Shown here in pieces: positions 29,243-54,083 of a stretch of 64,000 nt of DNA. How positions within the stretch are numbered: position 1 is the first letter of the stretch; each line of letters opens with the position of its first letter. A program made the translations under genes and the position numbers. The notes under the pieces were generated by a model, which was not told the DNA's origin, ran no database searches, and saw nothing but the letters and a program-made list of their open reading frames with translations. The DNA lies in the NCBI GenBank assembly GCA_020628865.1, contig JAHDEJ010000026.1, positions 1 through 64,000 on the forward strand, in the 5' to 3' direction. Source of the DNA: Acidimicrobiales bacterium. Its GTDB lineage: Bacteria; Actinomycetota; Acidimicrobiia; Acidimicrobiales; SHLQ01.

Positions 29243-29249
29243 GCGGCGC

Positions 29250-29255
29250 AGCCTA
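29250..29255 (-). promoter_or_regulatory. Leaderless -10 box of the site-2 protease gene
   Basis: TAGGCT on the minus strand, seven bases before the ATG. Confidence 0.5.
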
Positions 29256-29267
29256 TCTTCCCCCGTG

Positions 29268-30835: not shown

Positions 30836-30838
30836 CGG

Positions 30839-34696: not shown

Positions 34697-34753
34697 AGCT
34701 GGGTGCCACGGTAGACGAACTGGGGCGGGACCGGCACTACAGTTCGGTATCAC

Positions 34754-35734
34754 ATGTCGACCTCAACGCTTTTCGTGCATGTGGGTGCGCCGAAGACCGG
34801 CTCGACGGCGCTCCAACGGCAGGCGACCGATGCACGCGAAGCCCTCGCCACCGCCGGCCTGCTCTACCCGGCCGCACATGCGCGTGGATTCGGTCACCAC
34901 GATCTTGCGTTCCTGGTGCACGGCGAGTTCCCCACCTGGGCAAAACCGGCCGACATCACGCTCGATACGGTCCTCACCGACCTTCGATCCGAGACGAAGG
35001 ACCATGCGGGGGACGTGCTGTTGAGCAGCGAGAACTTCTTCCTGTTCTCCCATCCCGAGCGCCTGCACCGTGCGCTCGAGGAAGCCGGCCTGCTTCAGGG
35101 CCGCCGGATCGAAGTGATCGTCTATCTTCGCCGCCAGGATGACCTGGCCGAATCCTGGTGGAACCAGTTGGTGAAGGCCCAGGGCTTCGCCGGTCCGTTG
35201 CAGGATGTGCTCGACGACCCACCCGCCTTCTTCGATTTCGCCCCGCGTCTCGACGAGTGGGCCGACGTGTTCGGCGACGATGCGCTTCGTGTCGGCGACT
35301 ACGACGCCCTGCCCGGCGATGCGGCCGGGCTCACGCAGGACTTCTGGGCCGCCGTCGGGCGGCCCGAGCTCGCTGGGCAGGTCGACATGCAGCGCGGTGA
35401 GCAGCGGGTCAACACTCGGCTTTCCCACGAGGCGCTCGAGCTGCAGCTCATCATCAATCGGCTCCCGCTCACCGTCGTCGAGAAGCGGGCGTTGCATCAG
35501 GAGCTCCAGAAACTCCCGAGCGAGTCGGACGGGCGCCTCCTCGACCTCGACCGCCGAGTCGAGTTCCTCAGCAGGTACCAGGCCGGCAATGACCGAGTCG
35601 CCGCCCGCCACTTCGGGCGAACAACACTCTTTGCGGATCCGAACCCGGACGACGAAGTTGCCGCCCCTCGGGAACCGCTCACACGCGATCGAGCCGTGGC
35701 GCTGATGGCGGACGCCGTCCTCAGGCAACGCTGA
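34754..35734 (+). CDS. Sulfotransferase-like protein
   Basis: A 326-residue protein with a P-loop-like PAPS motif at the N-terminus, 'LFVHVGAPKTGSTALQRQ', followed by 'LLSSENFFLFSHPERL' and 'IEVIVYLRRQDDLAESWWNQLVK' (overview), typical of sulfotransferase-like proteins of surface-polysaccharide loci. The second motif has Arg-Arg-Gln-Asp where canonical enzymes have Arg-(Asp/Glu)-Pro. It is divergent from the glycan operon and probably belongs to the same pathway. A TACAGT box lies ten bases before the ATG. Confidence 0.82.
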   Translation: MSTSTLFVHVGAPKTGSTALQRQATDAREALATAGLLYPAAHARGFGHHDLAFLVHGEFPTWAKPADITLDTVLTDLRSETKDHAGDVLLSSENFFLFSHPERLHRALEEAGLLQGRRIEVIVYLRRQDDLAESWWNQLVKAQGFAGPLQDVLDDPPAFFDFAPRLDEWADVFGDDALRVGDYDALPGDAAGLTQDFWAAVGRPELAGQVDMQRGEQRVNTRLSHEALELQLIINRLPLTVVEKRALHQELQKLPSESDGRLLDLDRRVEFLSRYQAGNDRVAARHFGRTTLFADPNPDDEVAAPREPLTRDRAVALMADAVLRQR

Positions 35735-35753
35735 GCTGACGCCGGCGAGCGGT

Positions 35754-36608
35754 TCAGCCCACCCCGAGTCGGTCCCGCTCGTCGCTGGTGAGACAGGTGC
35801 GAATCTGCTGGTTGATTCTGGCGATCTCGTCCGGGTCGCCGGACAGGTCGGCTTCGATGGTGACGCGAACGAACTCGCGGTCGGCGTAGAGCGAGTCGAT
35901 GCAGTCGATGCTCGGAACGGAAAGTTCCCCTGCGATCTGGCCGGACAGGGCACGACCGACGGACACGCAGCCGGAGAACAGGTCCAGATACAGGTTCTGC
36001 ACGTCGACGTCGACGGCGAGAAAGTCGAACGGATCTTCATCGAAGAGCGCCGCCCAGAACGGCAGGTAGGCGTCGTCGCCACGAAGCGTGGATGCCACAC
36101 AGGCGGCCTCGCCCGCGGGGAGATCCGCTCCGCCCGCCGAGAGCAGACCGGACGCGAAGGCATCGACTGCTGCCGGAGATGCACACGACTTCACTCCATC
36201 CACCAGCGCCGGAAGACGCTCTGCGCCGCCGTCGATCGCGTCGGTGACCGCATCGTCGGCACACTCCTGCTCATCGAGGGTCAGCACCAGGCCGGTCGCA
36301 CCGAGCTCCGTGTAGACATCGGCGTTCTCCGAGTCGGGGTTCACGACGATCGTGGTGGCGGTCGCCGTCTCGTCGGTCGTGGTTGCGGCATCCGTGTCGG
36401 GGGCAACGGTGGTCGTTGCCGTGTCGTCGGTCTCCAACTCGCCGTCCTCGGCATCGTCAGCGTCGGTCTCTTCAGCGTCGGGAACCGACGACGTGGTGGT
36501 CGACGGATCGTCGGTCAGCTCCGGGCCGGGATCGACGGTGCTCTCGCCCCGCCCACACGCAGCACACAGAAGGACGAGCGTGAACAGAACGGTGGCGCGG
36601 CGAACCAT
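35754..36608 (-). CDS. Putative lipoprotein with Thr/Asp-rich linker
   Basis: A 284-residue exported protein. The signal peptide ends with lipobox 'LLCAAC' (Cys18). Residues 20-95 are a disordered Asp/Glu/Thr-rich linker. The globular part (95-284) has six cysteines that could form disulfides and a repeated 'VTDAIDGGAERLPALVDGV'-like helical pattern. I recognise no named family, though Cys-paired helical domains of this kind are common in Acidimicrobiia lipoproteins. A TAGCGT box six bases before the ATG implies leaderless transcription. Confidence 0.75.
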   Translation of the reverse strand: MVRRATVLFTLVLLCAACGRGESTVDPGPELTDDPSTTTSSVPDAEETDADDAEDGELETDDTATTTVAPDTDAATTTDETATATTIVVNPDSENADVYTELGATGLVLTLDEQECADDAVTDAIDGGAERLPALVDGVKSCASPAAVDAFASGLLSAGGADLPAGEAACVASTLRGDDAYLPFWAALFDEDPFDFLAVDVDVQNLYLDLFSGCVSVGRALSGQIAGELSVPSIDCIDSLYADREFVRVTIEADLSGDPDEIARINQQIRTCLTSDERDRLGVG

Positions 36609-36614
36609 GACTCC

Positions 36615-36620
36615 ACGCTA
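36615..36620 (-). promoter_or_regulatory. Leaderless -10 box of the lipoprotein gene
   Basis: TAGCGT on the minus strand, six bases before the ATG. Confidence 0.5.
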
Positions 36621-36684
36621 GAGGTTCGTCGGCCGCCGACCGGGTCGCCTCCGAACTGACGAATCAACAGGGAGACGCGACACT

Positions 36685-37716
36685 GTGGAGATGCTCGAAC
36701 CGGGATCGAACCACCTGCGCGCCCGGTCGCTCCGATTCGCCCTGCTGGCGTTCGCACTCCTGCTCGCGTCCTGTGCGTCCTCGCCGAACGACGCAAGTCC
36801 GGACACCTCCGTTCCCGCACGACCGGGCGGGCGGGTGGCGGGCGAACCCGCCGACGACCGGGCTCGCACGGCGATGGAACCATCCGAAACGCCACAAGCA
36901 GCCGTGCTCCACATCCTCGGCACGCTCTCGCTGCTGCCGGAGAGTCCGGCGGCGATACCGCAGCAGGTCACCCCGCTCCAGACCGATCTTGCGTCCGTCG
37001 TGTCACTCGGCTGCACGCCCGGAGATGACGGCTGCGAAGTCGAACGGGTGGAGCTCCTCGAGTCCGCCAACCTCGAGGTCGTGAACCTGGCAACGGCCGC
37101 AGCGGGAACGGCGGAGGGCGCCACGCTGAATTCGACCGTCTCAACCCTCGGCGAGGCAGGAATCGGGGTGATCGGCTGGGGCGCCAACCTCGAGGAGGCC
37201 GTCCTTCCGCTCCAGATTCGGACGGGTGGCCAGACGATCGCGCTGCATGCGATCTCGCTTGCGGAGGACGGAGCCGACCGCACCGCCCACGCGACAGAGG
37301 ACGCCGCCGGTATTGCGGGGCCCGACGCCTTCGTGGCGCTGCTGCAGGCGTTGATGGACAGCGAGACCGCCGGTCACCGCGTCGTGGTCGCCGTCGATTG
37401 GGGCGACGCCGAGCGCCGTTCGCCGGACAAGGACACCGTCGATCTGGCCACGGCGCTCGTGCGGGCGGGAGCGGATGCCGTCGTCGGTTCGGGTTCCGAG
37501 TTTCTGAATCGGCTCGAGGTGATCGAGGGCGCTCCGGTGGCGTTCGATCTGGGTCAGGCCGCCACAGAAACCGATGATGCCCTCCGCCGTGACACCGCCG
37601 TGTTGCGGCTCGTGTTCGGGCAGACTGCCGCAGAGACCTGCCTGCTTCCTGCAACCGCGAACGCATCCGGCCCGGTACTCGACGACGGGCTCGACGAGGA
37701 CCCCTGCGACTCCTGA
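36685..37716 (+). CDS. Lipoprotein with degenerate CapA-like domain
   Basis: A 343-residue exported protein, with lipobox 'LLASC' near residue 30 after a GTG start (an ATG two codons later is an alternative; GGGAGA lies upstream). The body resembles the CapA/PgsA poly-gamma-glutamate group: 'NLEVVNLATAAAG', 'LNSTVSTLGEAGIGVIGWGANLEEA' and 'HRVVVAVDWGDAE' (overview). The metal-binding GD and GNHE-type residues of active members are not apparent ('LGTLSL' stands where GD is expected), so it may be catalytically inactive. Function unknown. Confidence 0.65.
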   Translation: MEMLEPGSNHLRARSLRFALLAFALLLASCASSPNDASPDTSVPARPGGRVAGEPADDRARTAMEPSETPQAAVLHILGTLSLLPESPAAIPQQVTPLQTDLASVVSLGCTPGDDGCEVERVELLESANLEVVNLATAAAGTAEGATLNSTVSTLGEAGIGVIGWGANLEEAVLPLQIRTGGQTIALHAISLAEDGADRTAHATEDAAGIAGPDAFVALLQALMDSETAGHRVVVAVDWGDAERRSPDKDTVDLATALVRAGADAVVGSGSEFLNRLEVIEGAPVAFDLGQAATETDDALRRDTAVLRLVFGQTAAETCLLPATANASGPVLDDGLDEDPCDS

Positions 37717-41325: not shown

Positions 41326-44300
41326 TCAGTTGGCCAGCCGCTCCATGATGGAGGCCACGAGCTCGTCGACCCCGTGGGGACCCACGATGCAGGTCTCCTC
41401 CGGTTGGTAGTGCGACCCTTCGATGGTCACGACGTCCAGCTCGCCGATCGGTTCCTGCAACGCCGTCCATGGCTCGACCGTCAGTGCGGTTCCGGTTTCG
41501 CTCGCGGCGATGTAGAGGATCGGCACATCGAGGGGCTGCGGGCGATAGCCGGCGGCCGCTCGGCGGATGACCGGGCCGAGATGTCGTTCCGCATCGGCCA
41601 TGTCGGGCGTCGCGCCCTTGTCGCGTGACGTGCGATAGCGACGACGGGCGAGACCGAACTCGGCGCGCTCCCGCAAACGGCCGAATCCCTCGTCGAGGAC
41701 GCCTCGTACACCCTGTTCTTCGAACAGGTCCGCATACTTCTCCATCGGGGTCCGGGTCTCGTCGGTGCTCATGCCCGCCATGAGCGTGTCGATCAGGCAG
41801 ACCAGCTCGACCTCGTCGCCCCGCTCCTGCAGGAGTCGGGCGATCTCCCAGGCGAGCAGGCCGCCGGTGGACCAGCCGACGAGCCGGTAGGGCCCCTCGG
41901 TCATCGTGCTGTCGATGGCGTCGAGCATGGCCGCCGCCTGCGCATCGATGCCTTCGACGGTTGCGCTTCGAGCGTCGGCACCGGGAAGACGGATGCCGAC
42001 GACCGGGATCGATCGATTGAGGGTCCGGACGAGCGGCGCGTACCGCAGCAGGTTTCCGCCGCCAGGCGGCAACATGATGAGCGGCGGCTCGTCGCCGGCG
42101 GACCGGAGCCACTCGACGAGACCGGCGTTCTCATGAGATGCCGGTTGGCGATCGGCAGCGACGATCGGTTCGACCGCCGCGGATGGCTCGTCGGACGGTG
42201 CCGGAGCTTCCTCGTCAGCGTCCTCGGCATCCGGCCGGCGACGGCGAGTCCAACGGCTCAGCGCACCGCCTGCGTCGGGCGATGCATCGGCGTCGTCAAC
42301 CACAACCTCGGGTGCAGACTCCTCAGGCGCAGGCGCAGCGATCTCAGCCGTCACCTCGGCCTCTTCGGCGGGGGCCGGGTCGGAGATCGCCGGGACAGCG
42401 GCGGGCGAGGCATCGTTCGAGCCGGAGGCCGGACGGAGTCGATCGGCGATCTCCGACGGCGTCGGTGCGTCGATCAACTCACCGATGGCGATCCGTCGCC
42501 CGAACGCGGTCTCGAGCAGCCCGACCAATTCGACCGCTCGAAGCGAGTCGCCGCCCATGTCGAAGAAGTCGTCATGCTCGGCCACCGGTCGTCCGTCGAA
42601 GCTCTGCGACCACAACGCAATGACCCGACGGAGCGTCGCATCGATCTCCGGCTCGACTGCGGGCTCAGCGACATCAGTATCCGATTCGACGTCGACGCCC
42701 TGTTGCGCTGCGGCGGGGATCGGCGGCGGCGTCACCAGCGCCGAGAGGGCCGAGCGATCGACCTTCCCGTTGCGCGTTCGGGGAAGCTGCTCGACGACCG
42801 AAACCGACGATGGCACGTGTGTGGGCGGAAGAAGTTCGGCAACGAGTCGCCGGAGGGCTTCGCCGTCCGCATCGTCCGCCTCGACCCAGCCCCGGAGTCG
42901 CCCATCGACGACGCCGACGGCTGCTGCGGCAACACCGGGCACCCGCAACAGCGTGTGTTCGACCTCGCCGGGTTCGATCCGGACGCCGCCGACCGACAAC
43001 TGATCGTCGATTCGTCCGAGGAATTCCAACACGCCATCGGCACGTTCCACGACCCGATCTCCGGTGCGGTAGGCGTGTTCGCCGTCGATGTCCGTGAATC
43101 CACCGGAGTCGACGTCGCCGAGGTAGCCGGACGACACCGTCGGGCCCAGCAGGATGAGTTCACCAGGCACGTTGGCCGGCACCTGCGTACCGTCTTCGGC
43201 CTCGATGCGGACTCGGACGCCGGGAATCGGCGCTCCGATCGGCACGGTGCCGGACGGCGAATCGTCGCAGCGATGAGCGGTCGCCCAGACGGTCGCCTCG
43301 GTCGGGCCGTACTCGTTCACGAGAGCAACGCCGGACGTGAGCTCGTGGTGACGACGGACGAGGTCGGGCGGGCACGCTTCCCCCGCCACGATGATCGTTT
43401 CGAGCGCCGGCAGCGCATCGCCGTGCCGCTGCAGCATGGCCCCGTACAAGGAGGGAACACACAGGGTGTGGGACGGCCTGGCGTCGGCGATCAGATGGAG
43501 CAGCGCGTCCACGTCGTGCACTTCGGCTTCGGTCGGCACCACCAGTTCGCCGCCGTCGGCGAGCGTCCAGAAGATGCCGGCGACCGACGAGTCGAATCCG
43601 GCGCTCGAGACGAGCAGATAGCTTCGGACCTCGTCGGCGTACCACTGCCGTCGGGCAGCGAGCGATGAGGCCAGGTTCGCGTGGGAGATGGACACGCCCT
43701 TCGGCCGTCCGGTGGATCCCGAGGTGAAGATGACGTACGCCTCGTCGTCGACGCTCGTGGGATGCGGACGGGCGGGCGGCAGAACGGCAGGATCGACCGC
43801 ATCCACGTCGACCCGGACCACATCATGCAGACCCTCGTGACCCGTCGAATCGGTCACGACAGCGGAGACGGCCGCACCGGCCATCAGCTCGGCAACCCGA
43901 GCCGGCGGCTGGCTCACGTCGACCGGCACGTACGAGGCACCGAGCATCCAGATGGCACGGATCGCCACCACAAGTTCCGTGGACCGAGCGAGCACGACAC
44001 CAACCCGATCTCCCGGCATCACACCCACGGCCCGGAGCCGGCCGGCGAGCGCTCCCGCTGCCTCGGCCACCTCGGCATGCGTTCGGCTGCGTTCACCGCA
44101 ACGAACGGCGGCTCGGTCCGCCGACGCCTGAGCGGCTGCGTCCAACAGCTGCGGAACGAGGACGGGCTCGCGGACGAGTTCGACCGTTGGCCGGACGCCG
44201 ACACGCGCAACGGAGGCCACGGAGTCGGCCGGCCGTTCGACGGCTGCGCCGAGCGCGACTGCGAACGCATCGAGCATCTCGGTTGCGGCGGCACGACCAA

Positions 44301-47300
44301 TCGTCTCGCCCCGGTACTCGCAACCGAGCTCCACGAGCTGTCCGCGGATCTGCACGAAGAAGGTCGCATCGTTCACCGATGCGCCGGAGGCGAGCGTGGC
44401 GTGATGGACGACCTCGCCGTCCAAGGCCGCGGGGGCGACGTCCTCGAAGGCGAGCATGATCCCGGCGCCAGGCTCGGAAACGCCGCGCGCACGGGCGGCC
44501 GCCACGAGGTCGGCGAAGGGGACGGTGCGTCGCTCGAGCGCCAACGCAAGCGAATCATGGACCTGCTCCGACAGGGCCATCAGCGATGACGCCGGATCGA
44601 CGTCGACGAGCATCGGCAGCGGGTTGACGAAGTAGCCGACCAGATCGGAGACCGAAGGATGATCGCGTACGGATCCGGCGATCGAGACCTCGAAGCGACG
44701 GTCGTCGTGCCACGGAGCCATCGCTGCGGAAAGCGCCGTGAGCAGCGTGGTGAACGTTGTGGTGTCGGCGGCGGCACGCAAACGGTCGGCGGTCACCGGC
44801 GCGACGGCGTCGATGAAGCCGTCGGGTTCGCCACCGGGCGGCAGCACCTGGACGCGGCCGGGTTCGGGGTCCCCGGGCTGCAGCCACATGTCGTCGAGCG
44901 AGGGTCGGTTCGCCCGCATCCACGCGCCGTGTTCCGCATAGCTGACCGGCAGGTGCGGAAGCTGGCCACCCCGGTAGGCCACATCGATCTGCTCCCAGAG
45001 CGAGTCCAGCGAGCTCGCGTCGCTGACGATGTGGTGCGCACGGATGAGCACGGCGCTCAGACCGCGGTCCGGTTCCCAGTCGGAAGCGAGATGGTGCACC
45101 GTCATCAACGGTCCATTGATGAGGTCGAACTGTTGGCGGTTCAGCTGATCGGCGAGCTGACGCAACGACGCGTGCTCGCTCGACGCCTCGCCGATACGGC
45201 ATGCCACGTCGATGGGGAGTTCCGACCGGTGCGAGCCGTACGAGGTACGCAGGGTGGGCTGGTGCTGGACAACGGCACGAACAGCGGCGTCGAACCGCTC
45301 ACGGTCGTAGCCCCCGGGGAGGTAGTAGAGCCGAGCGACGTTGTAGCGAAGGTCGGCCGGGTTCAACCGCCACTCGTAGAGCATCGAGGCTTCGCCGGGG
45401 CTGAGCGGACGCTCGCCGTCCAACGTCGGGATCTCCAATTCGGCGGCGGGTGCGGAATCCGGGTCCGCGGCGAGGGCCTCGACCGCCGAGGCCAGGTCCG
45501 CGACCGTTCGATGGGTGAAGGCCAACGACTCGTTCACCTTCACGCCGCACACCTGGCTCACCCGAACGATCATCTCCAGCGCGTGCAGCGACGTGCCACC
45601 GAGGGCGAAGAAGTCGTCGTTTGCGCCGACGGCGCCAAGACCGAGCACACCGGCCCAGACCGAAGCGATCTGCTGTTCGGTCGTGGTTTCCGGCAGACGG
45701 CCGGATGCCGCCGCGGAAACCGACCGACGCGAGGCCGGCGCAGGCAACGCCCCGGTGTCGACCTTGCCGTTGACGGTCAGCGGCACTTCATCGATGAGTT
45801 CGATCGCCTGCGGGTGCGCGTGTGCGGGGAGGAGGCGAACCAGTTCCGCCCGAACCTCGTCGATGTTCGGTTCGGCGCCAGCCTCTGCGGTGACCCAGAG
45901 GGTCAGCACTTCCGGCGGCTTCGGTTCGTACCCGACCTCCGCGAGCATCTCCGTGATCGAGGCGAGCTCCTGCTCGTCCATCGGATCGTCGAGTTCGAAC
46001 ATCGCTTCGTCTCGGGTCTTGTGCCCGAGACGCACATCCCAGCTGTACGGCAGGGCGTAGTTGTGGTGGGCCTGCTCAATCTTGTGCACGTAGATTCCGG
46101 CGGCGTTGATGAGACAGTTGGTCGAGCGGCCGGTGTCGTCGGGCCGTTCCCATGTGCCCGAGGACTCGAGCACCCGGTACATCTCCGAGAGCTCGACATC
46201 GACGTAGCGGTAGAAGTCGATGAAGGAGACACGATCGAAGATCTCGCCGTCCTGCAGGAAGTCGACGTCCATGTTCTCCGACACGGCGTCCGGGGTGCGG
46301 TGATAGATGCGCCGGGCTTCCGTGACCGCCACGTCGATCGAGTTCGGGTCGAACCGGTCGGTCTCGAACAGGCCGGGAACGAGACGTGTTTCGAAGAACT
46401 GGCCACGCGAGAGGCCGGTGACGATTGCCGGGATACCGAGGCGGTCGGCGCGCTCGAGTGCGATCGTGTAGATCGCCTTGTAACAGCCGTTGCACACGTT
46501 CGAGAACCGCTCGAGGCTGTCGCGGAAGATCTCGTTCATTGCCTCGACGGTGACGAACTCGTGGTCGACACCGAGCGCGGCGGTGGCTCGACGGACGTTG
46601 TCCTTTGCGCCGTCGGAGATGAATCCGTTGTCCAAGGTGATGGCGAGCACCCGGGCACCCATCTCGACCAGACGGTAGAGCGCGTACGTGGAGTCCTTGC
46701 CGCCGGAGAGCAGGTGGAGAACGTCGTAGTCGCCGGTGGAACGGGCGTTGGCCGCACGCAGTTCGCGATGGAGGTCGTCCTCGCTGCGGAACCACGCCGC
46801 TGCCTGCGGAGCCACGACGTCGTACTCATGACAACTGGTGCACACACCATCGGCGTCGACGACGATGCCCGGAACGTCGGAACCGAGTCCGCACCGAACG
46901 CAGTGGTCGATGCGTTGGTTCCGGTCCGGCATCCACAGGCCGGCGACGGCAGCGTCGATGCCGGGGATGGAACGGGCGGCGGCTTCGATCTCGCCCGGTT
47001 CGAGGCGGACGCCACGCACCTTGATCTGGTGGTCGACACGGCCGAGATACACCATGCGTTCCGAGTCGAGCATGCGGACGCGATCGCCGGTCCGGTAGAC
47101 GATGTCGTGGTTTCCGGTCGCCGGACGGCTGCCGAACTTCTCCGCGTTCAGGTCGTCGCGTCCGAGGTAGCCGGCGGTCATTCCCGGACGGCTGATGTAG
47201 AGCTCACCCTCAGCGCCCAGCGGCACGGGATGTCCGGCGTCGTCGAGGATGTGCAGTGCGACGCCGGGAGCGTTGTGGCCGATCGGCACCTCCGGCCCAC

Positions 47301-49494
47301 CATCGTGTTCCGGCGAGTAGCGGTGCAGCATGCAACCCACGACCGCTTCCGTCGGACCGTACTCGTTCCAGATCGCCGTGTCGGAACCGCAGGACAGCAG
47401 GATGCGGTCCGCCAGCTCCGTCATGAACGCTTCGCCACCAACGATGAGGCCACGCAACGGATGGGACGGCTCGATCATGCGGACGAGGAGTTCGAGGTGG
47501 GACGGCGTCGCCTTCATCAGCGTCACCACGTTGTCTTCGACAATCTCGCGCAGTGCAGGCAGACCGCCGTCGGGGTGCACCGTCATCGCGCCGCCGGAGA
47601 TGAAGGGCAGGAAGAGCGTGGTGATCGTGAGATCGAAGCTGAGCGACGTGTAGAGCGGCATCGTCGGGGCGGTGTCGCCGACGTAGGACGCGAGCGCAAA
47701 GCCGAGGTACTCGCGCAGCCCGCCGTGTGTGATCGGAACACCCTTTGGCAGACCGGTCGAACCCGACGTGTAGATCACGTATGCGAGATCGTCGCTGTCG
47801 ACGGGGCGCAGGTCGACGCCGTCGACGGCGTCCAGCGCGTCCAGGTCGGCGAGTGAGGTCAGGGTGATCGCCGCACGCGAGTCTTCGCGGATGTGATCGC
47901 GTCGTACCTCGGGGTACGTGGGGTCGATCGGCACGAACGCCGCGCCGGCGCGGAGAACACCGTGGATGGCGACGACGGCGTCGGTCGAGATCGGGATTTC
48001 GATGCCGACGCGTGCGCCGGGGCCGATGCCGGCTGAGCGGAGGCGGTCGGCGACGGCCTCGATGCGTTCATCGAGTTCCCTGCCCGACACGGCGACGCCG
48101 CGCTCGGTGAGAACGACTCGGTCGCCGGCCACGGCGAGAAACTCGGCCACGAGGTGGGGAGCGGCCGCAGGGAGCGGCTGGCCAGGGGCCGGGTGGGTGA
48201 AGGACGCAACGTCCTCCACGTCCTCGTCGGTGGCCAGACCGAAGCCGTCGAGCCTGGCGTCCGGGTTGTCCAACATGGCGTCGAGGACGGCGCCGAAGTG
48301 TGCGCCGGCACGTTCCCGGTGGATGGGTCCGGCGATGGCGTGGTTGAGGTCGAGGCCGAGCTGCAGTTCGCCGCTGCCGTCGTAGTCGAGCGCCTGCACA
48401 CGCAGGCGGTGATGCGAGTCGATGTGGCCGGGGTGAATCCAGGTGGTGGTCGTCGGCATGTCGCCGAACGAACCGAATGTGGCCGACACGTTGTTGAGCA
48501 CGACATCGAAGTTCTGCCGCGGACTCGTTCCCGGCTGGGCGTGACGGAGCATCTCGAAGACGGCGGCCGACGTCCGTTCCTGAAGTCGGGCGAAGGTGTC
48601 GTCCCGCTCGATCTCGATCGTCACCGGGAAGAGTTCGACGAGCGGCCCGATGGCCGTCTTCGAGCGCCGCGATGTCCGGTGGTGGATCGGCATGCCGATC
48701 GTGACGCGGTCCGATCCGTTCAGCCGGTGCAGGTAGCAGGCGATGACGGTGGCGAGCGCAACGGACTGGGAAAGGTCTTCGCTGAGCAGCCGAAATCGAT
48801 CGGCGAGGAGCGCGTCGAAGCGGGACTGCCGATGTCCGTGCAGCGGGACGTTGACACGATCGGCGAGGGTCGTGGCCTCGGCCTCGGGCTGATAGAAGCC
48901 GGTCGGTTCAACGACCGCCGTCTGTTCTGCCCAGTGGGCGGCGGCCTTCTGCCAGCGCTTCGTCTCTTGCGTTGCGTCGAGTTCGGCCGTCAGCTCTTCG
49001 AAGGACATGCCGGGCGTGTAGCTGCCGAGATAGGCGGCGGCCACGCTCTGGAAGATGAGGGCGGAGCTGGCGGCATCGGTGGCGATGTGGTGCACGTTGA
49101 ACCACCAGGACCACCGACCGGAACCGTGCTGGAGAAGCACGGAGTCGTAGACGGATTCGGCCGGGTCGAGCGGCGTCGCAATCCGGTCCCGGACCCACGC
49201 TTCGGTCTCGTCCGCATCGAGTTCGAGCACTGCGGTGGTCGAGGTGGCCGTGGCGGCAACCGACGGATGTGGCACGCCATCGACTTCACGAATCCGCATT
49301 CGGAGCGCATCGCTGGAGCGGACGACCTCGTCGACCGCAGCGACGAACCGTTCCGGGTCGATGTCGCCCGTGAATCGGGAGAGGTTCGCCATGTTCGCCA
49401 GCGGCACATCCGGGTGCAGACGCTGCGACGTCCAGATCAGTTCCTGGGCAGCTGTCAGCGTGCGTCGCGGATGGAGATGGACCGATTGCGACAT
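41326..49494 (-). CDS. Nonribosomal peptide synthetase C-A(ATP-PPase)-T-C-A-T-TE
   Basis: A 2,722-residue dimodular synthetase. Order: C1 (about 8-440, HHxxxDA at H135); A1 (455-840, 'TSGSTGLPKG' at 576, 'NEYGPTE' near 709); an inserted zinc-ribbon and PP-loop ATP-pyrophosphatase domain (about 855-1190, SGGKDS 930-935); the A1 tail with catalytic Lys1244 in 'NGKVD'; T1 (Ser1302); C2 (HHIVSDA at H1487); A2 ('TSGSTGRPKG' at 1924, Lys2244); T2 (Ser2317); a disordered Pro/Ala/Glu linker (about 2400-2500); and a type I thioesterase with Ser2542 in 'GWSTGG', Asp in 'CLIDT' and His in 'GSHY'. All catalytic motifs are intact. Pocket residues read about DLTKIGEVGK for A1 (asparagine-like) and DSALIAEVWK for A2 (no confident match). 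C1 at the N-terminus implies an upstream donor, presumably the adjacent carrier protein. The ATG is one base after the carrier-protein stop. Confidence 0.95.
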   Translation of the reverse strand: MSQSVHLHPRRTLTAAQELIWTSQRLHPDVPLANMANLSRFTGDIDPERFVAAVDEVVRSSDALRMRIREVDGVPHPSVAATATSTTAVLELDADETEAWVRDRIATPLDPAESVYDSVLLQHGSGRWSWWFNVHHIATDAASSALIFQSVAAAYLGSYTPGMSFEELTAELDATQETKRWQKAAAHWAEQTAVVEPTGFYQPEAEATTLADRVNVPLHGHRQSRFDALLADRFRLLSEDLSQSVALATVIACYLHRLNGSDRVTIGMPIHHRTSRRSKTAIGPLVELFPVTIEIERDDTFARLQERTSAAVFEMLRHAQPGTSPRQNFDVVLNNVSATFGSFGDMPTTTTWIHPGHIDSHHRLRVQALDYDGSGELQLGLDLNHAIAGPIHRERAGAHFGAVLDAMLDNPDARLDGFGLATDEDVEDVASFTHPAPGQPLPAAAPHLVAEFLAVAGDRVVLTERGVAVSGRELDERIEAVADRLRSAGIGPGARVGIEIPISTDAVVAIHGVLRAGAAFVPIDPTYPEVRRDHIREDSRAAITLTSLADLDALDAVDGVDLRPVDSDDLAYVIYTSGSTGLPKGVPITHGGLREYLGFALASYVGDTAPTMPLYTSLSFDLTITTLFLPFISGGAMTVHPDGGLPALREIVEDNVVTLMKATPSHLELLVRMIEPSHPLRGLIVGGEAFMTELADRILLSCGSDTAIWNEYGPTEAVVGCMLHRYSPEHDGGPEVPIGHNAPGVALHILDDAGHPVPLGAEGELYISRPGMTAGYLGRDDLNAEKFGSRPATGNHDIVYRTGDRVRMLDSERMVYLGRVDHQIKVRGVRLEPGEIEAAARSIPGIDAAVAGLWMPDRNQRIDHCVRCGLGSDVPGIVVDADGVCTSCHEYDVVAPQAAAWFRSEDDLHRELRAANARSTGDYDVLHLLSGGKDSTYALYRLVEMGARVLAITLDNGFISDGAKDNVRRATAALGVDHEFVTVEAMNEIFRDSLERFSNVCNGCYKAIYTIALERADRLGIPAIVTGLSRGQFFETRLVPGLFETDRFDPNSIDVAVTEARRIYHRTPDAVSENMDVDFLQDGEIFDRVSFIDFYRYVDVELSEMYRVLESSGTWERPDDTGRSTNCLINAAGIYVHKIEQAHHNYALPYSWDVRLGHKTRDEAMFELDDPMDEQELASITEMLAEVGYEPKPPEVLTLWVTAEAGAEPNIDEVRAELVRLLPAHAHPQAIELIDEVPLTVNGKVDTGALPAPASRRSVSAAASGRLPETTTEQQIASVWAGVLGLGAVGANDDFFALGGTSLHALEMIVRVSQVCGVKVNESLAFTHRTVADLASAVEALAADPDSAPAAELEIPTLDGERPLSPGEASMLYEWRLNPADLRYNVARLYYLPGGYDRERFDAAVRAVVQHQPTLRTSYGSHRSELPIDVACRIGEASSEHASLRQLADQLNRQQFDLINGPLMTVHHLASDWEPDRGLSAVLIRAHHIVSDASSLDSLWEQIDVAYRGGQLPHLPVSYAEHGAWMRANRPSLDDMWLQPGDPEPGRVQVLPPGGEPDGFIDAVAPVTADRLRAAADTTTFTTLLTALSAAMAPWHDDRRFEVSIAGSVRDHPSVSDLVGYFVNPLPMLVDVDPASSLMALSEQVHDSLALALERRTVPFADLVAAARARGVSEPGAGIMLAFEDVAPAALDGEVVHHATLASGASVNDATFFVQIRGQLVELGCEYRGETIGRAAATEMLDAFAVALGAAVERPADSVASVARVGVRPTVELVREPVLVPQLLDAAAQASADRAAVRCGERSRTHAEVAEAAGALAGRLRAVGVMPGDRVGVVLARSTELVVAIRAIWMLGASYVPVDVSQPPARVAELMAGAAVSAVVTDSTGHEGLHDVVRVDVDAVDPAVLPPARPHPTSVDDEAYVIFTSGSTGRPKGVSISHANLASSLAARRQWYADEVRSYLLVSSAGFDSSVAGIFWTLADGGELVVPTEAEVHDVDALLHLIADARPSHTLCVPSLYGAMLQRHGDALPALETIIVAGEACPPDLVRRHHELTSGVALVNEYGPTEATVWATAHRCDDSPSGTVPIGAPIPGVRVRIEAEDGTQVPANVPGELILLGPTVSSGYLGDVDSGGFTDIDGEHAYRTGDRVVERADGVLEFLGRIDDQLSVGGVRIEPGEVEHTLLRVPGVAAAAVGVVDGRLRGWVEADDADGEALRRLVAELLPPTHVPSSVSVVEQLPRTRNGKVDRSALSALVTPPPIPAAAQQGVDVESDTDVAEPAVEPEIDATLRRVIALWSQSFDGRPVAEHDDFFDMGGDSLRAVELVGLLETAFGRRIAIGELIDAPTPSEIADRLRPASGSNDASPAAVPAISDPAPAEEAEVTAEIAAPAPEESAPEVVVDDADASPDAGGALSRWTRRRRPDAEDADEEAPAPSDEPSAAVEPIVAADRQPASHENAGLVEWLRSAGDEPPLIMLPPGGGNLLRYAPLVRTLNRSIPVVGIRLPGADARSATVEGIDAQAAAMLDAIDSTMTEGPYRLVGWSTGGLLAWEIARLLQERGDEVELVCLIDTLMAGMSTDETRTPMEKYADLFEEQGVRGVLDEGFGRLRERAEFGLARRRYRTSRDKGATPDMADAERHLGPVIRRAAAGYRPQPLDVPILYIAASETGTALTVEPWTALQEPIGELDVVTIEGSHYQPEETCIVGPHGVDELVASIMERLAN
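45925..46932 (-). other. ATP-pyrophosphatase (PP-loop) domain inserted in adenylation domain 1
   Basis: Residues about 855-1190 of the synthetase. It opens with a zinc ribbon, C865-x2-C868 ('CVRC') and C885-x2-C888 ('CTSC'), then 'DVLHLLSGGKDSTYALYRL' with the N-type PP-loop, 'LAITLDNGFISDGA', a third pair C1001-x2-C1004 ('CNGC'), 'IPAIVTGLSRGQFFETRL' and 'STNCLIN'. The layout matches N-acetyl-sugar amidotransferase (WbpG/PseA)-type and TtcA-like alpha-hydrolases, which adenylate a substrate oxygen before an amide or sulfur transfer. It sits between the A8 region ('YLGRVDHQIKVRG') and the A10 Lys, where other synthetases carry methyltransferase inserts. Confidence 0.9.
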
Positions 49495-49495
49495 C

Positions 49496-49744
49496 TCAGG
49501 CCGCGTTTCGGCCGGAGAGGTACTCCACGATCCGGTCGACCGTCTGGAAGTTCTCGAGGGTCACATCGCCCGGAGGCACGTCCACCTCCAGCTCGTCCTC
49601 GATCCACTGCGTGATCCGGATGACCCCGAGGCTGTCCACCAGCCCGCTCAACAACAGGTCCGTATCGGAGGCGACCTCGCCGTCCATCACCGCAACCTCG
49701 TCGCGGATGAAAGTGATCAGTTCTTGGGTCTTCATTTCGTTCAT
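49496..49744 (-). CDS. Stand-alone acyl/peptidyl carrier protein
   Basis: An 82-residue carrier protein. 'LLLSGLVDSLGVIRITQWIEDEL' contains Ser38 in the DSL motif that receives phosphopantetheine. The ATG overlaps the stop of the upstream adenylation gene (ATGA), and the synthetase starts one base after its own stop. It most likely carries the starter residue activated by the free-standing adenylation enzyme and passes it to C1. No phosphopantetheinyl transferase is in the window. Confidence 0.94.
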   Translation of the reverse strand: MNEMKTQELITFIRDEVAVMDGEVASDTDLLLSGLVDSLGVIRITQWIEDELEVDVPPGDVTLENFQTVDRIVEYLSGRNAA

Positions 49745-51297
49745 CGCTCCGTCTCCACGCTCGCGAGAACTTCTTCGCGGAGCGCACCACGATCCAGTTT
49801 GCCACTACCAGTGAATTTCTTGCCACTCATCGTGGCGATATGAGTCGGAAGGGCATAGGCCGGAAGCACGGCTCGGGCCGCTGTCCGGAAGCCATCGAGA
49901 TCAAAGCCCTCGCCCGCAAACACCCCGACCACCACCGAGTCCTCACCCGCCGACCGACGATCCACCGCCGCGATCACGTGCTCCACACCGTCGAGTGCCT
50001 CCAACTCTGCTTCGAGACCCTCCAGCTCGATGCGATGACCCCGCACCTTCACCTGATGGTCGACCCGACCGAGGAACCACCAGACACCGGCCGCGTCGAC
50101 CCGACCGAGGTCACCGGTCCGGTACCACCGGCGACCCTCGAACTCGACGAGACGCTCCGCATTCGTCTCCGGCATCCCGTGGTAGCCCTCCATGACCGTC
50201 GGCCCCGACACCCAGATCTCCCCTTCGGTCCGCTCCCCTTCCGGCGATGGTGTGCCGGCGTCGGGCGCACCCAGACGCATCGTCGCCGACGGTGTTGCCA
50301 CGCCGATCGGGATCACCTCGCCCGGCAACGGAGCCACCACGAGGTGGTGAAAGCTGCACTGGTTGCACTCGGCCGGACCATAGATGTTCGCCATCGTCGC
50401 ATTCGGGGCGTGCGCCAGCATTTCTGCGATCACCCACGGCGGAGGAACCTCGCCGCCGAACTTCACCCAGCGCAGCGCCGAGAGATCGCGATTCTCGAGA
50501 TCTCCCCGAACCACGAGCTGTTGCAGCAGAAACGGCACGCCGTACCAGACCGTGATGGCCTCGGCCGCCAACCGCTCCGAAAAGCTGGCTGGCATGCGCT
50601 GATGCGGTTCGGGCATCGTCACGACCGCAGACCCCGCCAACGGCGCCGACCACAACGCAAAGGTCGACTGGTCGAAATGGTTGGGGGCCGTGTCGGCAAC
50701 ACGATCCGCCGGGCCCAATCCGTAGAGCTCGGCCGATTCCGTCGCATACGCCATGCCGCTCGCATGGGTGTGGACGATTCCCTTGGGCTCGCCCGTCGAG
50801 CCCGAGGTCGTGATGATGTACGCCGGGTCATCCTGCTCGACATCCACCGGATCGACCGGGAACAGGTTGGCCACGTCCGCGGTCGTCAGCGTTCGCAGTC
50901 CGTCGACCGCCGTGGTCACACCCACGACCGCATCGATCACCCCGGCCGCGCCCAGCTCGGTGATCGTCGAGCGACGCGGCTCATGGCTCAGCACGACCCG
51001 GATTCCCATCGAGGAGCAGATTCGTTCGAGCCGGGCCACGGGCGCACCCGGATCCAGCGGCACGGCGACCGCACCGATCCGAACGACGGCGTGCATCGCA
51101 AGCCATCCGTCGTCCGACTTGTGGAGGTGGACGCCGACACGGTCGCCGGGCTCGACCCCCAGCTCCTGCAGCGCAGCTGCGAGCTGCCCGACCCGGAGGT
51201 CGGCCTCGGCCCAGGTCCACGTCCGGCCGATGCCCACGAGCCCGACGACGTCCGGGCTGGCCGACGCCTGGCGTCGAAGAATGTGGGAAAGGCTCAT
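49741..51297 (-). CDS. Free-standing amino-acid adenylation enzyme
   Basis: A 518-residue AMP-forming enzyme. 'TTSGSTGEPKGIVHTHA' (A3, residues 164-), 'NIYGPAECNQC' (A5), 'YRTGDLG' (A7), 'FLGRVDHQVKVRGHRIE' (A8) and 'GSGKLDRGAL' with the catalytic Lys (A10) are complete. Asp in 'HFDQSTF' sits at the alpha-amino-contact position, suggesting an amino acid substrate; my reading of the pocket, about DQFYKGIQC, matches nothing I know. The start MSLSHILRR has GGAG upstream. It should load the adjacent carrier protein. The head-to-head acyl-CoA dehydrogenase invites comparison with PltF/PltL/PltE. Confidence 0.92.
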   Translation of the reverse strand: MSLSHILRRQASASPDVVGLVGIGRTWTWAEADLRVGQLAAALQELGVEPGDRVGVHLHKSDDGWLAMHAVVRIGAVAVPLDPGAPVARLERICSSMGIRVVLSHEPRRSTITELGAAGVIDAVVGVTTAVDGLRTLTTADVANLFPVDPVDVEQDDPAYIITTSGSTGEPKGIVHTHASGMAYATESAELYGLGPADRVADTAPNHFDQSTFALWSAPLAGSAVVTMPEPHQRMPASFSERLAAEAITVWYGVPFLLQQLVVRGDLENRDLSALRWVKFGGEVPPPWVIAEMLAHAPNATMANIYGPAECNQCSFHHLVVAPLPGEVIPIGVATPSATMRLGAPDAGTPSPEGERTEGEIWVSGPTVMEGYHGMPETNAERLVEFEGRRWYRTGDLGRVDAAGVWWFLGRVDHQVKVRGHRIELEGLEAELEALDGVEHVIAAVDRRSAGEDSVVVGVFAGEGFDLDGFRTAARAVLPAYALPTHIATMSGKKFTGSGKLDRGALREEVLASVETER

Positions 51298-51459
51298 CGG
51301 TTGAACTCCATGCCAGATTCGCGCATCCGCACGTCGCCTTCGTGGCGAAGAAGCGGACATGAGGGTGCAGTGGCGAGGGTGTGAAATTGCATATCTGACC
51401 GTGTGTGGTACTCGTGGCTCGTCGGGCGTCGTGCCCGCACGTTGGAAGGTACGTTGCGA

Positions 51460-52698
51460 ATGAGCGTTTCAGATGCGACAAATGCATCACCGGTGTCCAC
51501 TGGCGACGCCGAGCCGCCGCGCTTGCTGTCCGGCGCCGAATCGATCCTGGAAGCGCTGATCGACGTCGACCATCCCCGGAAGGTCGCAGCATCCCGATGG
51601 GCGGCGGAACATCTCACCGACCCGTCCCTTGCGGAGCGGGACCACAGCTGCACGTTCTGGGCCGAGGGCTGGAAGCGGCTCGCCGATCGCGGCATGTTCG
51701 GACTGCTCGCCGACGAGCGCCACGGTGGCCAGAACCTCGAACTGTGTGCCGCCCTCCTCACGATCGAAGGACTCGGCCACGGTTGCCGTGACGAGGGCCT
51801 GATTTTCGCCATGAGCTCCCAGGTGCTGACCATGCAGCTCACGCTCCAACGATTCGGATCAAAGGATCAGCAGGATCGGTGGATGCCGCACCTCCTGAGC
51901 GGCGATGCGTTCGGCGCCTTCGCAATGACCGAACCCAACTCGGGATCCGACGCATACTCCCTTTCCACCACCGCGGAGCGCACCTCCGAGGGCTACGTCC
52001 TGAATGGCGAGAAGGCGTGGATCACAATGGCCCCGCTCGCCGACGTGTTCGTCGTGTTCGCAACGGTCAACCCGGACGTCGGCCGGTGGGGCATCACCTC
52101 GTTCCTCGTCCCCGGCGACACCCCAGGCCTGATCGTCGGCCCGAACATGCCCAAGTCCGGCATGCGGACGACGCCGTTCGCCAACGTTCGCTTCGAGAAC
52201 TGCGCGATCCCCGAATCGGCCCGCATCGGGGCCGAAGGCGCCGGCGCAAGCATGTTCTCCTCCGCCATGGAGGCCGAGCGCGGTTTCCTTCTCGCCAGCG
52301 GTGTCGGCGCACTCCAACGAGTGCTCGAAGACACGGTCGAGTTCGCCAGCTCTCGCGAACAGTTCGGTCAGGCGATCGGTGCCTTCCAGGGCGTGTCGCA
52401 CCCCATCGCCGAGATCAAACTCGCCCATGAATCCGCCCGGCTGCTGCTCTACAAAGCCGCAGCGCTCCAACAACGCGGCGACGCCTCCATGATGGCGGCG
52501 GCGCTCGCAAAACTCGGTGCTTCCGAGGCCGTACTCAGCGGTTCCCTGACCTCACTCGAGGTGCATGGAGCCCGCGGCTACGTCACCGAATACGAAGTCG
52601 AGCGCGAAGTCCGCAACGCGCTCGGCGGCGTGATCTATGGCGGCTCGTCCGCCATCCAGAAAAACATCATCGCCCGACTCCTCGGGCTCCCCGGCTGA
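51460..52698 (+). CDS. Acyl-CoA dehydrogenase-family enzyme of the peptide locus
   Basis: A 412-residue flavoprotein of the acyl-CoA dehydrogenase family. 'AFAMTEPNSGSDAYSLSTTAE', 'LNGEKAWITMAPLADVFVVFA', 'REQFGQAIGAFQGVSHPIAEIK' and 'VHGARGYVTEYEVEREVRNALGG' are typical. In the C-terminal motif the usual EGT/GGTxEIQ reads 'IYGGSSAIQKNIIA', so no Glu is present there. Its head-to-head placement with the adenylation gene (162-base gap) suggests it oxidises the carrier-bound starter, as PltE oxidises prolyl-S-PCP. The start at MSVSDAT is supported by GGAAGG; an in-frame GTG lies 57 bases upstream. Confidence 0.9.
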   Translation: MSVSDATNASPVSTGDAEPPRLLSGAESILEALIDVDHPRKVAASRWAAEHLTDPSLAERDHSCTFWAEGWKRLADRGMFGLLADERHGGQNLELCAALLTIEGLGHGCRDEGLIFAMSSQVLTMQLTLQRFGSKDQQDRWMPHLLSGDAFGAFAMTEPNSGSDAYSLSTTAERTSEGYVLNGEKAWITMAPLADVFVVFATVNPDVGRWGITSFLVPGDTPGLIVGPNMPKSGMRTTPFANVRFENCAIPESARIGAEGAGASMFSSAMEAERGFLLASGVGALQRVLEDTVEFASSREQFGQAIGAFQGVSHPIAEIKLAHESARLLLYKAAALQQRGDASMMAAALAKLGASEAVLSGSLTSLEVHGARGYVTEYEVEREVRNALGGVIYGGSSAIQKNIIARLLGLPG

Positions 52699-52703
52699 AA
52701 GTG

Positions 52704-54083
52704 ATGCAAACCGTGAATACAGACCCCCGCCAAGAAGCCAAGAAGGTGCGCCGGATACGGCTGCTCCTCGTGGCAACGCTCATCCCACTGTTTGGATGGG
52801 CGTTCACCAGCGCCGCCTCGGCCCACGACGGCACGAGCAGCGTGATCTTCCTCGACATCTACCCGGATGGAACGGTCGAGGGGCAGGTCGAGCATCCCTA
52901 TGCGCTCCTCAACGAGGAGTTCGGCTTCGAACTCGACCCGGACACCTCGACCGAAGATGACGTCGCCGCCACGAACATCATCATGAAGGACTTCAACACC
53001 CAGAGCCTCATGATCGAGATGGACGGCGAACTGTGGCCCATCACCTTCACGGACACCGAGGTCGTCCCCACGGAGAACACCACCTACGCGGGCTACAACT
53101 TCGTCGTCGACCGAGTCTTCGATGAAGCGCCCCGAATCTTCGACGTGACCTACTCGGGCATCTTCGACACCCGGGCCGGCCACAGCGGTTTCGTCACGAT
53201 CCGCACCGACCCGGTGACCGGCACGTTCCTCAACGAGGCCGACTTCCAGCCGGACCTCATGTCGTCGAACGATCCGACCACCAGCGTCAACCTGGACGAC
53301 CCCAACACGATGGCCGCCCTTCGAGGCACGATCTGGCTCGGTATGGAGCACATCTTCATCGGCACGGACCACATCCTGTTCGTGCTCGTGCTCCTGCTCC
53401 CCGCCGTGATGCTCTTCTCGCTCGCCGGCGGCTGGAAGCCCGTACCCGACTTCAAGTCCGGCCTCTGGCGGGTCCTGAAGATCGCCACGATGTTCACGAT
53501 CGCCCACTCCATCACGCTCACGCTTGGCGGCCTGGAGATCATCGAGCTACCCGGGAAGTTCGTCGAGACGGTGATTGCGCTGTCGATCATCGCGGCGGCG
53601 TTCCACAACCTGAAACCGATCTTCGCCAACCAGGAGCACATGATCGCCTTCGCCTTCGGCATCTTCCATGGCTTCGGATTCGCCGGCCTGCTCTCCGACC
53701 TCGGCGTCGGTCGCGGTCAGCGTCTGCTGTCGCTCTTCGGCTTCAACCTCGGCGTCGAGATCGGTCAGGCGTTCATCATCCTGCTCCTGTTCCCGGCCCT
53801 GTACCTGCTGCGCCGCACCGTCTACTACCCGATGATCATCAAGGTCGGCTCGATGCTGCTCGCACTCGTCGCCGCCATCTGGGCGATCGAGCGCATCTTC
53901 GAGACGTCGCTGGGCATCGACGACATCCTCGAGAAGTTCACCCGGGCTCCACGCGTCTTCGTGCTGATCGCGATCGTCACGGCAATCGCCGCCGCGGTCC
54001 GTCAGGTCGAGGACACTCGAGGCCAACTGATCTCCGTCGAGGACGGCGCATCAGACGACCAGGAGTTCGCCGGAATCCGCTGA
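52704..54083 (+). CDS. HupE/UreJ-family membrane protein
   Basis: A 459-residue exported membrane protein. A signal-like segment ends at 'ASAHDG', a roughly 170-residue extracytoplasmic domain follows, then a HupE/UreJ-type region with 'GMEHIFIGTDHILFVLVLLLP', 'FTIAHSITLTLGG', 'GIFHGFGFAGLL' and 'FNLGVEIGQAF', whose His and Asp residues could bind metal. About seven transmembrane segments are present. HupE and UreJ are linked to nickel or cobalt entry; this long form occurs without hydrogenase or urease genes here. It starts five bases after the dehydrogenase stop, so the two are likely co-transcribed. Confidence 0.88.
   Translation: MQTVNTDPRQEAKKVRRIRLLLVATLIPLFGWAFTSAASAHDGTSSVIFLDIYPDGTVEGQVEHPYALLNEEFGFELDPDTSTEDDVAATNIIMKDFNTQSLMIEMDGELWPITFTDTEVVPTENTTYAGYNFVVDRVFDEAPRIFDVTYSGIFDTRAGHSGFVTIRTDPVTGTFLNEADFQPDLMSSNDPTTSVNLDDPNTMAALRGTIWLGMEHIFIGTDHILFVLVLLLPAVMLFSLAGGWKPVPDFKSGLWRVLKIATMFTIAHSITLTLGGLEIIELPGKFVETVIALSIIAAAFHNLKPIFANQEHMIAFAFGIFHGFGFAGLLSDLGVGRGQRLLSLFGFNLGVEIGQAFIILLLFPALYLLRRTVYYPMIIKVGSMLLALVAAIWAIERIFETSLGIDDILEKFTRAPRVFVLIAIVTAIAAAVRQVEDTRGQLISVEDGASDDQEFAGIR

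What the first reader, a model, noticed from the sequence alone, without database searches (positions are those of the whole stretch)
45925..46932. PP-loop ATP-pyrophosphatase domain embedded inside an NRPS adenylation domain
Seen: between the A8 region and the A10 lysine (Lys1244) of the first adenylation domain there are about 335 residues with a two-CxxC zinc ribbon (C865/868, C885/888), SGGKDS at 930-935 and a further CxxC at 1001/1004. Frame and motifs on both sides are intact, so it is a true in-frame insertion. Known: this position tolerates inserts, usually methyltransferases; N-type ATP-PPases activate carboxyl, carbonyl or amide oxygen for amination, thiolation or nitrile formation (Asn synthetase, N-acetyl-sugar amidotransferases, TtcA, QueC, YcfA-type thioamide enzymes). 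Inference: the residue on T1 is amidated, thioamidated or converted to a nitrile or amidine while bound. I know of no described synthetase with this architecture, but could not search.
Basis: partly seen in the sequence, partly recalled or inferred. Interest (0 to 1): 0.93.

Follow-up and report, generated by a model that had tools for sequence, protein, structure and literature searches.

The report
Amide-dehydratase domain inside asparagine-loading synthetase domain
A peptide-making enzyme carries, inside the part that picks asparagine, an extra ATP-using domain that probably turns the asparagine side chain into a nitrile; the layout is known from the antibiotics albicidin and cystobactamid, but here it sits in a gene cluster shared by many bacterial phyla whose product is unknown and looks like a metal scavenger.

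Summary
The 2722-residue NRPS (C-A1[insert]-T-C-A2-T-TE, minus strand) has an in-frame insert of about 330 residues between core motifs A8 and A9 of A1. It is not an assembly chimera: the same interrupted A domain occurs in 30 of 397 genomes of the order and in at least 79 of the 80 best relatives from a dozen or so bacterial phyla.

The architecture is already described. Cystobactamid CysH and albicidin AlbIV carry such a domain ('AMDH', amide dehydratase/aminomutase) inside an Asn-activating A domain, and it makes beta-cyano-alanine or isoasparagine on the carrier protein. All relatives here keep the Asn code (DLTKxGEVGK). Nitrile formation is therefore the best explanation, and thioamidation (CtaC-like) the main rival.

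Two points appear to add to the papers read here. The invariant CxxC...C triad matches the [4Fe-4S] site of TtuA/NcsA and CtaC, which could explain why CysH is brown. Most copies lie in one conserved cluster: probable pyrrole starter, Asn*, His, plus HupE/UreJ, and in Bacteroidota a TonB receptor and a His-rich protein: an orphan, metallophore-like family.

The parts
41326..49494 (-). NRPS, 2722 aa: C1-A1[AMDH-like insert]-T1-C2-A2-T2-TE
   Evidence: ORF, Pfam domains
47044..48192 (-). A1 core subdomain, aa 435-817; specificity code DLTKIGEVGK read as Asn
   Evidence: manual reading of the motifs; code conserved in relatives; DLTKIGEVGK listed for Asn/cyano-alanine in PMC12283262
46912..47043 (-). 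A1 C-terminal subdomain, first half, with A8 GRVDHQIKVRGVRLEPGEIE (aa 818-861)
   Evidence: A8 conserved; strand 412-420 of the model before the insert
45922..46911 (-). Insert, aa 862-1191: Zn-ribbon-like CxxC/CxxC, PP-loop SGGKDS, CxxC...C; AANH fold; AMDH-like domain
   Evidence: AlphaFold pLDDT 91.8; fold neighbours
46690..46707 (-). PP-loop SGGKDS (aa 930-935)
   Evidence: invariant in 50 relatives
46483..46494 (-). CNGC (aa 1001-1004), first two cysteines of the putative [4Fe-4S] triad
   Evidence: invariant in 50 relatives; aligned with the CYNC of [4Fe-4S] LarE 8cnz; absent from three WbuX proteins
46114..46116 (-). C1127, third cysteine of the putative triad (STNCLIN)
   Evidence: invariant; absent from WbuX; spacing matches CtaC C284
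45709..45921 (-). A1 C-terminal subdomain, second half, with A9 and A10 (K1244)
   Evidence: K invariant
45484..45675 (-). T1 carrier domain (aa 1274-1337)
   Evidence: Pfam PF00550
42745..44142 (-). A2, code DSALIAEVWK read as His
   Evidence: DSALIAEVWK assigned to His in PMC12283262
49496..49744 (-). Stand-alone carrier protein, 82 aa
   Evidence: PF00550 E=4e-9
49741..51360 (-). Stand-alone adenylation enzyme, probably prolyl-AMP ligase
   Evidence: PF00501; context with prolyl-PCP dehydrogenase; code not a standard Pro code
51403..52698 (+). Acyl-CoA-dehydrogenase-type L-prolyl-PCP dehydrogenase homologue (pyrrole formation)
   Evidence: NF045652 E=9e-105, NF053553 E=3e-102, both below the equivalog cut-offs
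52701..54083 (+). HupE/UreJ_2 membrane protein; predicted mature N-terminus is His after ASA
   Evidence: PF13795 E=3e-42; in 27 of 33 fully flanked relatives; only copy in this genome

Best explanation
The insert is an AMDH-type domain of the CysH/AlbIV kind: an ATP-pyrophosphatase (AANH) nested between A8 and A9 of an Asn-activating A domain. A1 adenylates Asn and loads it on T1. The insert then uses a second ATP to adenylate the side-chain amide oxygen, and loss of AMP and a proton gives the nitrile, beta-cyano-L-alanine, still bound to T1. An aminomutase outcome (isoasparagine) is possible, but in CysH it is favoured by a beta-hydroxylase that is not seen next to this NRPS. A [4Fe-4S] cluster held by C1001, C1004 and C1127 probably serves as a Lewis acid or substrate anchor. 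The assembly line would then make pyrrole-2-carbonyl - (cyano-Ala) - His and release it through the TE. Shown here: architecture, intact motifs, Asn and His codes, seven invariant cysteines, neighbourhood. Inferred: reaction, cluster, pyrrole starter, order of steps.
For: Insert is in frame between A8 and A9 with all A motifs kept. At least 79 of the 80 nearest relatives show A7 or A8 motifs directly upstream of the insert, and the Asn code residues are conserved across phyla. CysH has the same layout, a 38 kDa domain and Asn specificity, and its deletion abolishes dehydration and isomerisation; in vitro T-bound Asn loses 18 Da only if the domain is present (PMC7966384). AlbIV has a 342-residue AANH insertion, its code DLTKIGEVGK also fits cyano-alanine, and the product contains beta-cyano-alanine (PMC12283262; PMC8949500). 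The PP-loop is invariant. The fold is AANH, closest to 8wex and then to [4Fe-4S] NcsA/TtuA.
Against: CysH and AlbIV sequences could not be fetched, so identity to them was not measured. The cysteine triad is otherwise known from thiolating enzymes, including a carrier-protein-dependent thioamide synthetase (CtaC), which points the other way. CysH and AlbIV are stand-alone A-T modules; this one sits in cis in a full C-A-T-C-A-T-TE line, so the outcome may differ.
Confidence: 0.68

Rival explanations
1. The insert is a cis-acting thioamide synthetase of the CtaC kind: it adenylates an amide oxygen (Asn side chain, or the pyrrole-Asn amide on T1) and replaces it with sulfur bound to a [4Fe-4S] cluster.
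For: CtaC is an Fe-S AANH enzyme acting on carrier-bound substrates, with PP-loop D77/S78 and cysteines C154, C157, C284 (PMC6772006). Here the same order is D934/S935, C1001, C1004, C1127, with similar spacing (66 and 123 against 76 and 127 residues). Fold neighbours include TtuA, NcsA and LarE. A thioamide would suit a metal chelator.
Against: CysH, which shares the architecture and Asn specificity, dehydrates or isomerises Asn and was not reported to thiolate it (PMC7966384). No sulfur-mobilising gene was found among the neighbours tested. The Asn code is conserved in all phyla, as expected if the Asn side chain is the substrate.
Confidence: 0.13
2. The insert works mainly as an asparaginyl aminomutase, giving isoasparagine on T1, as CysH does after hydroxylation.
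For: CysH AMDH isomerises T-bound (hydroxy-)Asn, with all carbon and nitrogen atoms kept (PMC7966384).
Against: In CysH this is favoured by the hydroxylase CysJ; no such gene was found among the neighbours tested. Without CysJ, dehydration rises.
Confidence: 0.12
3. The insert is an amidotransferase like N-acetyl sugar amidotransferase and makes an amidine from Asn with ammonia.
For: Best curated profile is TIGR03573 over nearly its full length; best fold match is 8wex, Z 20.1.
Against: Score is half the family cut-off. Three genuine family members lack C1001, C1004 and C1127 and travel with HisH or HisF partners, which are missing next to this NRPS.
Confidence: 0.04
4. The insert has lost catalysis and is structural only, or is an assembly artefact.
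For: None found.
Against: PP-loop and seven cysteines invariant over 50 relatives from many phyla; same fusion in independent genomes.
Confidence: 0.03

Closest known systems
AMDH domain of CysH (cystobactamid) and the AANH-like insertion of AlbIV (albicidin)
   Same: AANH domain of about 340 aa with SGGKD nested in an Asn-activating A domain followed by T; modifies the Asn side chain on the carrier (PMC7966384, PMC12283262, PMC8949500)
   Different: CysH and AlbIV are stand-alone A-T modules that feed another line in trans. Here the module is in cis: C-A-AMDH-T, then a His module and TE, with a probable pyrrole starter and a HupE/UreJ neighbour. Sequence identity to CysH/AlbIV not measured.
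CtaC, thioamide synthetase of closthioamide (PMC6772006)
   Same: PP-loop followed by CxxC and a distant Cys at nearly the same spacing; acts on carrier-bound substrates
   Different: Free-standing enzyme; makes thioamides on the beta-alanine backbone; found mostly in anaerobes
TtuA/NcsA [4Fe-4S] tRNA thiolases and [4Fe-4S] LarE
   Same: Fold (Z 11 to 12) and three-cysteine pattern after the PP-loop
   Different: Act on tRNA or cofactor, not on carrier-bound amino acids; sulfur insertion
N-acetyl sugar amidotransferase WbuX/WbpG (TIGR03573; 8wex)
   Same: Best profile and best fold match, similar N-terminal ribbon and PP-loop
   Different: Lacks the three later cysteines; works with HisH/HisF; sugar substrate

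Membership tests
AMDH-interrupted Asn adenylation domains (CysH/AlbIV) | In-frame AANH insertion between A8 and A9/A10 of an intact A domain followed by T | tested here: met
AMDH-interrupted Asn adenylation domains (CysH/AlbIV) | Asn specificity code | tested here: met
   DLTK(I/V)GEVGK, conserved across phyla; code assignment from PMC12283262
AMDH-interrupted Asn adenylation domains (CysH/AlbIV) | SGGKD motif and domain size near 38 kDa / 342 aa | tested here: met
   SGGKDS invariant; insert about 330 aa
AMDH-interrupted Asn adenylation domains (CysH/AlbIV) | Direct sequence similarity to CysH or AlbIV AMDH | not tested
AMDH-interrupted Asn adenylation domains (CysH/AlbIV) | Dehydratase or aminomutase activity on T-bound Asn | not testable with these tools
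   needs a biochemical assay
N-acetyl sugar amidotransferase (TIGR03573) | Score above the curated cut-off | tested here: not met
   101.8 against 203.2 bits
N-acetyl sugar amidotransferase (TIGR03573) | HisH/HisF-type partner genes nearby | tested here: not met
   present beside the plasmid-borne members examined, absent among tested neighbours here
CtaC-type thioamide synthetase | PP-loop plus CxxC...C Fe-S triad with matching spacing | tested here: met
   invariant C1001, C1004, C1127; CtaC positions from PMC6772006
CtaC-type thioamide synthetase | Sequence similarity to CtaC and sulfur insertion on carrier-bound amides | not tested
Metallophore gene cluster | Biosynthesis genes linked to metal uptake genes | tested here: inconclusive
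   HupE_UreJ_2 in 27/33 fully flanked loci; TonB receptor and His-rich protein in Bacteroidota; metal and role unknown

The most novel reading that the evidence does not exclude
AMDH domains are [4Fe-4S] AANH enzymes, and the pan-phylum cluster (pyrrole - modified Asn - His, with HupE/UreJ and, in Bacteroidota, a TonB receptor and a His-rich protein) makes a widespread, undescribed metallophore whose metal-binding or tuning group is made by this domain.
Probability: 0.4. Interest if true: 0.8.

Novelty: new member of a known kind. Interest (0 to 1): 0.52.

Why it matters
The mechanism of AMDH domains was left open in 2021: the enzyme is brown, but no cluster motif was recognised. The invariant CxxC...C triad gives a concrete, mutable hypothesis. 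The authors also could not link any homologue to a product. The shared neighbourhood suggests that many homologues belong to one conserved pathway with a predictable skeleton and mass, possibly a metal scavenger used by marine and soil bacteria of many phyla. Nitrile-forming modules are also sought for NRPS engineering.

Tried and rejected
Assembly chimera or frameshift: rejected by conservation. Plain sugar-amidotransferase domain: rejected by score and missing triad. Thioamide as first choice: considered from CtaC spacing, then demoted after reading the CysH experiments. Fetching CysH or AlbIV through genome searches of Myxococcota gave only a related stand-alone module (L112/L136) and free-standing enzymes. 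Literature searches for NRPS plus PP-loop plus thioamide, or sugar amidotransferase plus nonribosomal, returned nothing. Standard Pro code for the stand-alone A enzyme: not found, so the pyrrole starter rests on the dehydrogenase and context.

Full report
What is there. The ORF at 41326-49494 (minus) encodes 2722 residues with two condensation, two adenylation, two carrier domains and a thioesterase. The insert runs from about residue 862 to 1191 (46911-45922). Taken alone it matches N-acetyl sugar amidotransferase TIGR03573 (E=5e-29, 101.8 bits, cut-off 203.2) and weakly ThiI/QueC PP-loop models. An AlphaFold model of the insert from 50 relatives has mean pLDDT 91.8. Its closest solved folds are the sugar amidotransferase 8wex (Z 20.1), then the [4Fe-4S] tRNA thiolases NcsA and TtuA (Z about 12), LarE, NAD synthetases and others of the superfamily. 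In a model of the whole A1 plus insert (pLDDT 89, pTM 0.68) the insert sits between two adjacent strands of the A subdomain, between A8 and A9.

It is real and old. A search of 397 genomes of the order found 30 with the same interrupted region. These come from Acidimicrobiia, Rhodobacteraceae, Verrucomicrobia, Cyanobacteria, Bacteroidota, Gammaproteobacteria, Betaproteobacteria, Acidobacteriota, Gemmatimonadota, Chloroflexota, Myxococcota and others. In 79 of the 80 the A7 or A8 motif lies directly upstream in the same frame; the remaining one is cut by the contig end. Over 41 of these A domains the motifs A3, A5, A7, A8 and the A10 lysine are kept, and so are code residues D, L, T, K, E, V, G.

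Substrate. The code reads DLTKIGEVGK. The regex script misread one letter for the window (one search prints M in place of K); read by eye and in alignment A6 the residue is the invariant K227. PMC12283262 lists DLTKIGEVGK for Asn and for beta-cyano-alanine, and DSALIAEVWK, the code of A2 here, for His. Both codes are conserved in the relatives.

Cysteines. Seven are invariant in 50 relatives: C865, C868, C885, C888 (a zinc-ribbon-like pair of pairs), and C1001, C1004, C1127. Three sugar amidotransferases aligned with the insert have none of the last three. CtaC has D77/S78 and C154, C157, C284, described as the [4Fe-4S] motif of TtcA/TtuA (PMC6772006). Spacings are 76 and 127 residues there, 66 and 123 here. 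Two free-standing homologues in other genomes also carry all seven cysteines (L142, L143).

What is already known. CysH of cystobactamid biosynthesis holds a 38 kDa domain, named AMDH, inside an Asn-activating A domain. It shares 69% identity with the insertion in AlbIV of albicidin. In vitro, T-bound Asn loses 18 Da only when the domain is present; in vivo, deleting it removes all isoasparagine and cyano-alanine products. The authors found numerous homologues, all inside Asn-specific A domains, none linked to a known metabolite. They noted that CysH is dark brown but did not recognise a cluster motif (PMC7966384). PMC8949500 and PMC12283262 repeat the AlbIV case.

Mechanism proposed. A1 loads Asn on T1 (sequence-based). 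The PP-loop adenylates the side-chain amide oxygen and AMP is lost to give the nitrile (by analogy with CysH/AlbIV and with the two-step reaction proposed for other ATP-dependent nitrile synthetases, PMC13060819). The role of the putative cluster is inference: its open iron could polarise the amide or hold the leaving oxygen. Thioamidation cannot be excluded without an assay.

Neighbourhood. Next to the NRPS lie a carrier protein, a stand-alone A enzyme, a prolyl-PCP dehydrogenase homologue and a HupE/UreJ_2 membrane protein. Of 33 relatives with full 10 kb flanks, 27 have HupE/UreJ_2, 23 the A enzyme, 23 the dehydrogenase, 19 a second NRPS, 12 an ornithine cyclodeaminase family gene, and 7 a TonB receptor. 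Most readable second-NRPS codes are of the His type. HupE/UreJ_2 is single copy in this genome, so chance proximity within 10 kb either side is of the order of 0.4%. In at least one further case HupE lies just outside the 10 kb flank on the same contig (L104/L131). Bacteroidota loci add a small His-rich protein between NRPS and TonB receptor. A pyrrole-Asn*-His chelator with dedicated uptake is a plausible reading, not a shown one.

Scores. As a finding, it is a confirmed member of a described NRPS class, so novelty is 'new member of a known kind'. Interest is kept in the middle because of the cysteine triad and the pan-phylum orphan cluster.

Noticed in passing
window 52701-54083 and loci L033-L114: HupE/UreJ_2 protein in 27 of 33 fully flanked AMDH-NRPS loci; in most of them the sequence after the signal-peptide-like stretch begins with His (AxA then H), reminiscent of N-terminal copper ligands.
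   Followed up: partly
L109:11462-11956, L111, L101, L096, L110, L113: In Bacteroidota a roughly 150-residue His-rich protein without Pfam match sits between the AMDH-NRPS and a TonB receptor.
   Followed up: partly
L032:13062-17112 (Streptomyces sp. NBC_01216 plasmid): A 39%-identical homologue of the insert is not inside an A domain but N-terminal to a condensation-like domain, next to asnB and an A-T protein: a split variant.
   Followed up: partly
L142:2280-3311 and L143:7117-8202: Free-standing 344 and 362 aa homologues with all seven cysteines; L143 lies beside an asparagine-synthetase-like gene and an NRPS-like ORF.
   Followed up: partly
L033 and L034 (Roseovarius pelagicus and Pseudohalocynthiibacter plasmids): The cluster is shared with identical protein accessions between plasmids of two genera, one typed conjugative, embedded in an exopolysaccharide locus: recent horizontal transfer.
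   Followed up: no
window 28550-37716: Polysaccharide-like region (glycosyltransferase, DegT aminotransferase, PGA_cap) upstream of the NRPS cluster.
   Followed up: no
window 49741-51360: The stand-alone A enzyme has a code of the type D(I/M/Q)F-x-LGVQC, conserved across relatives but unlike a standard proline code.
   Followed up: no
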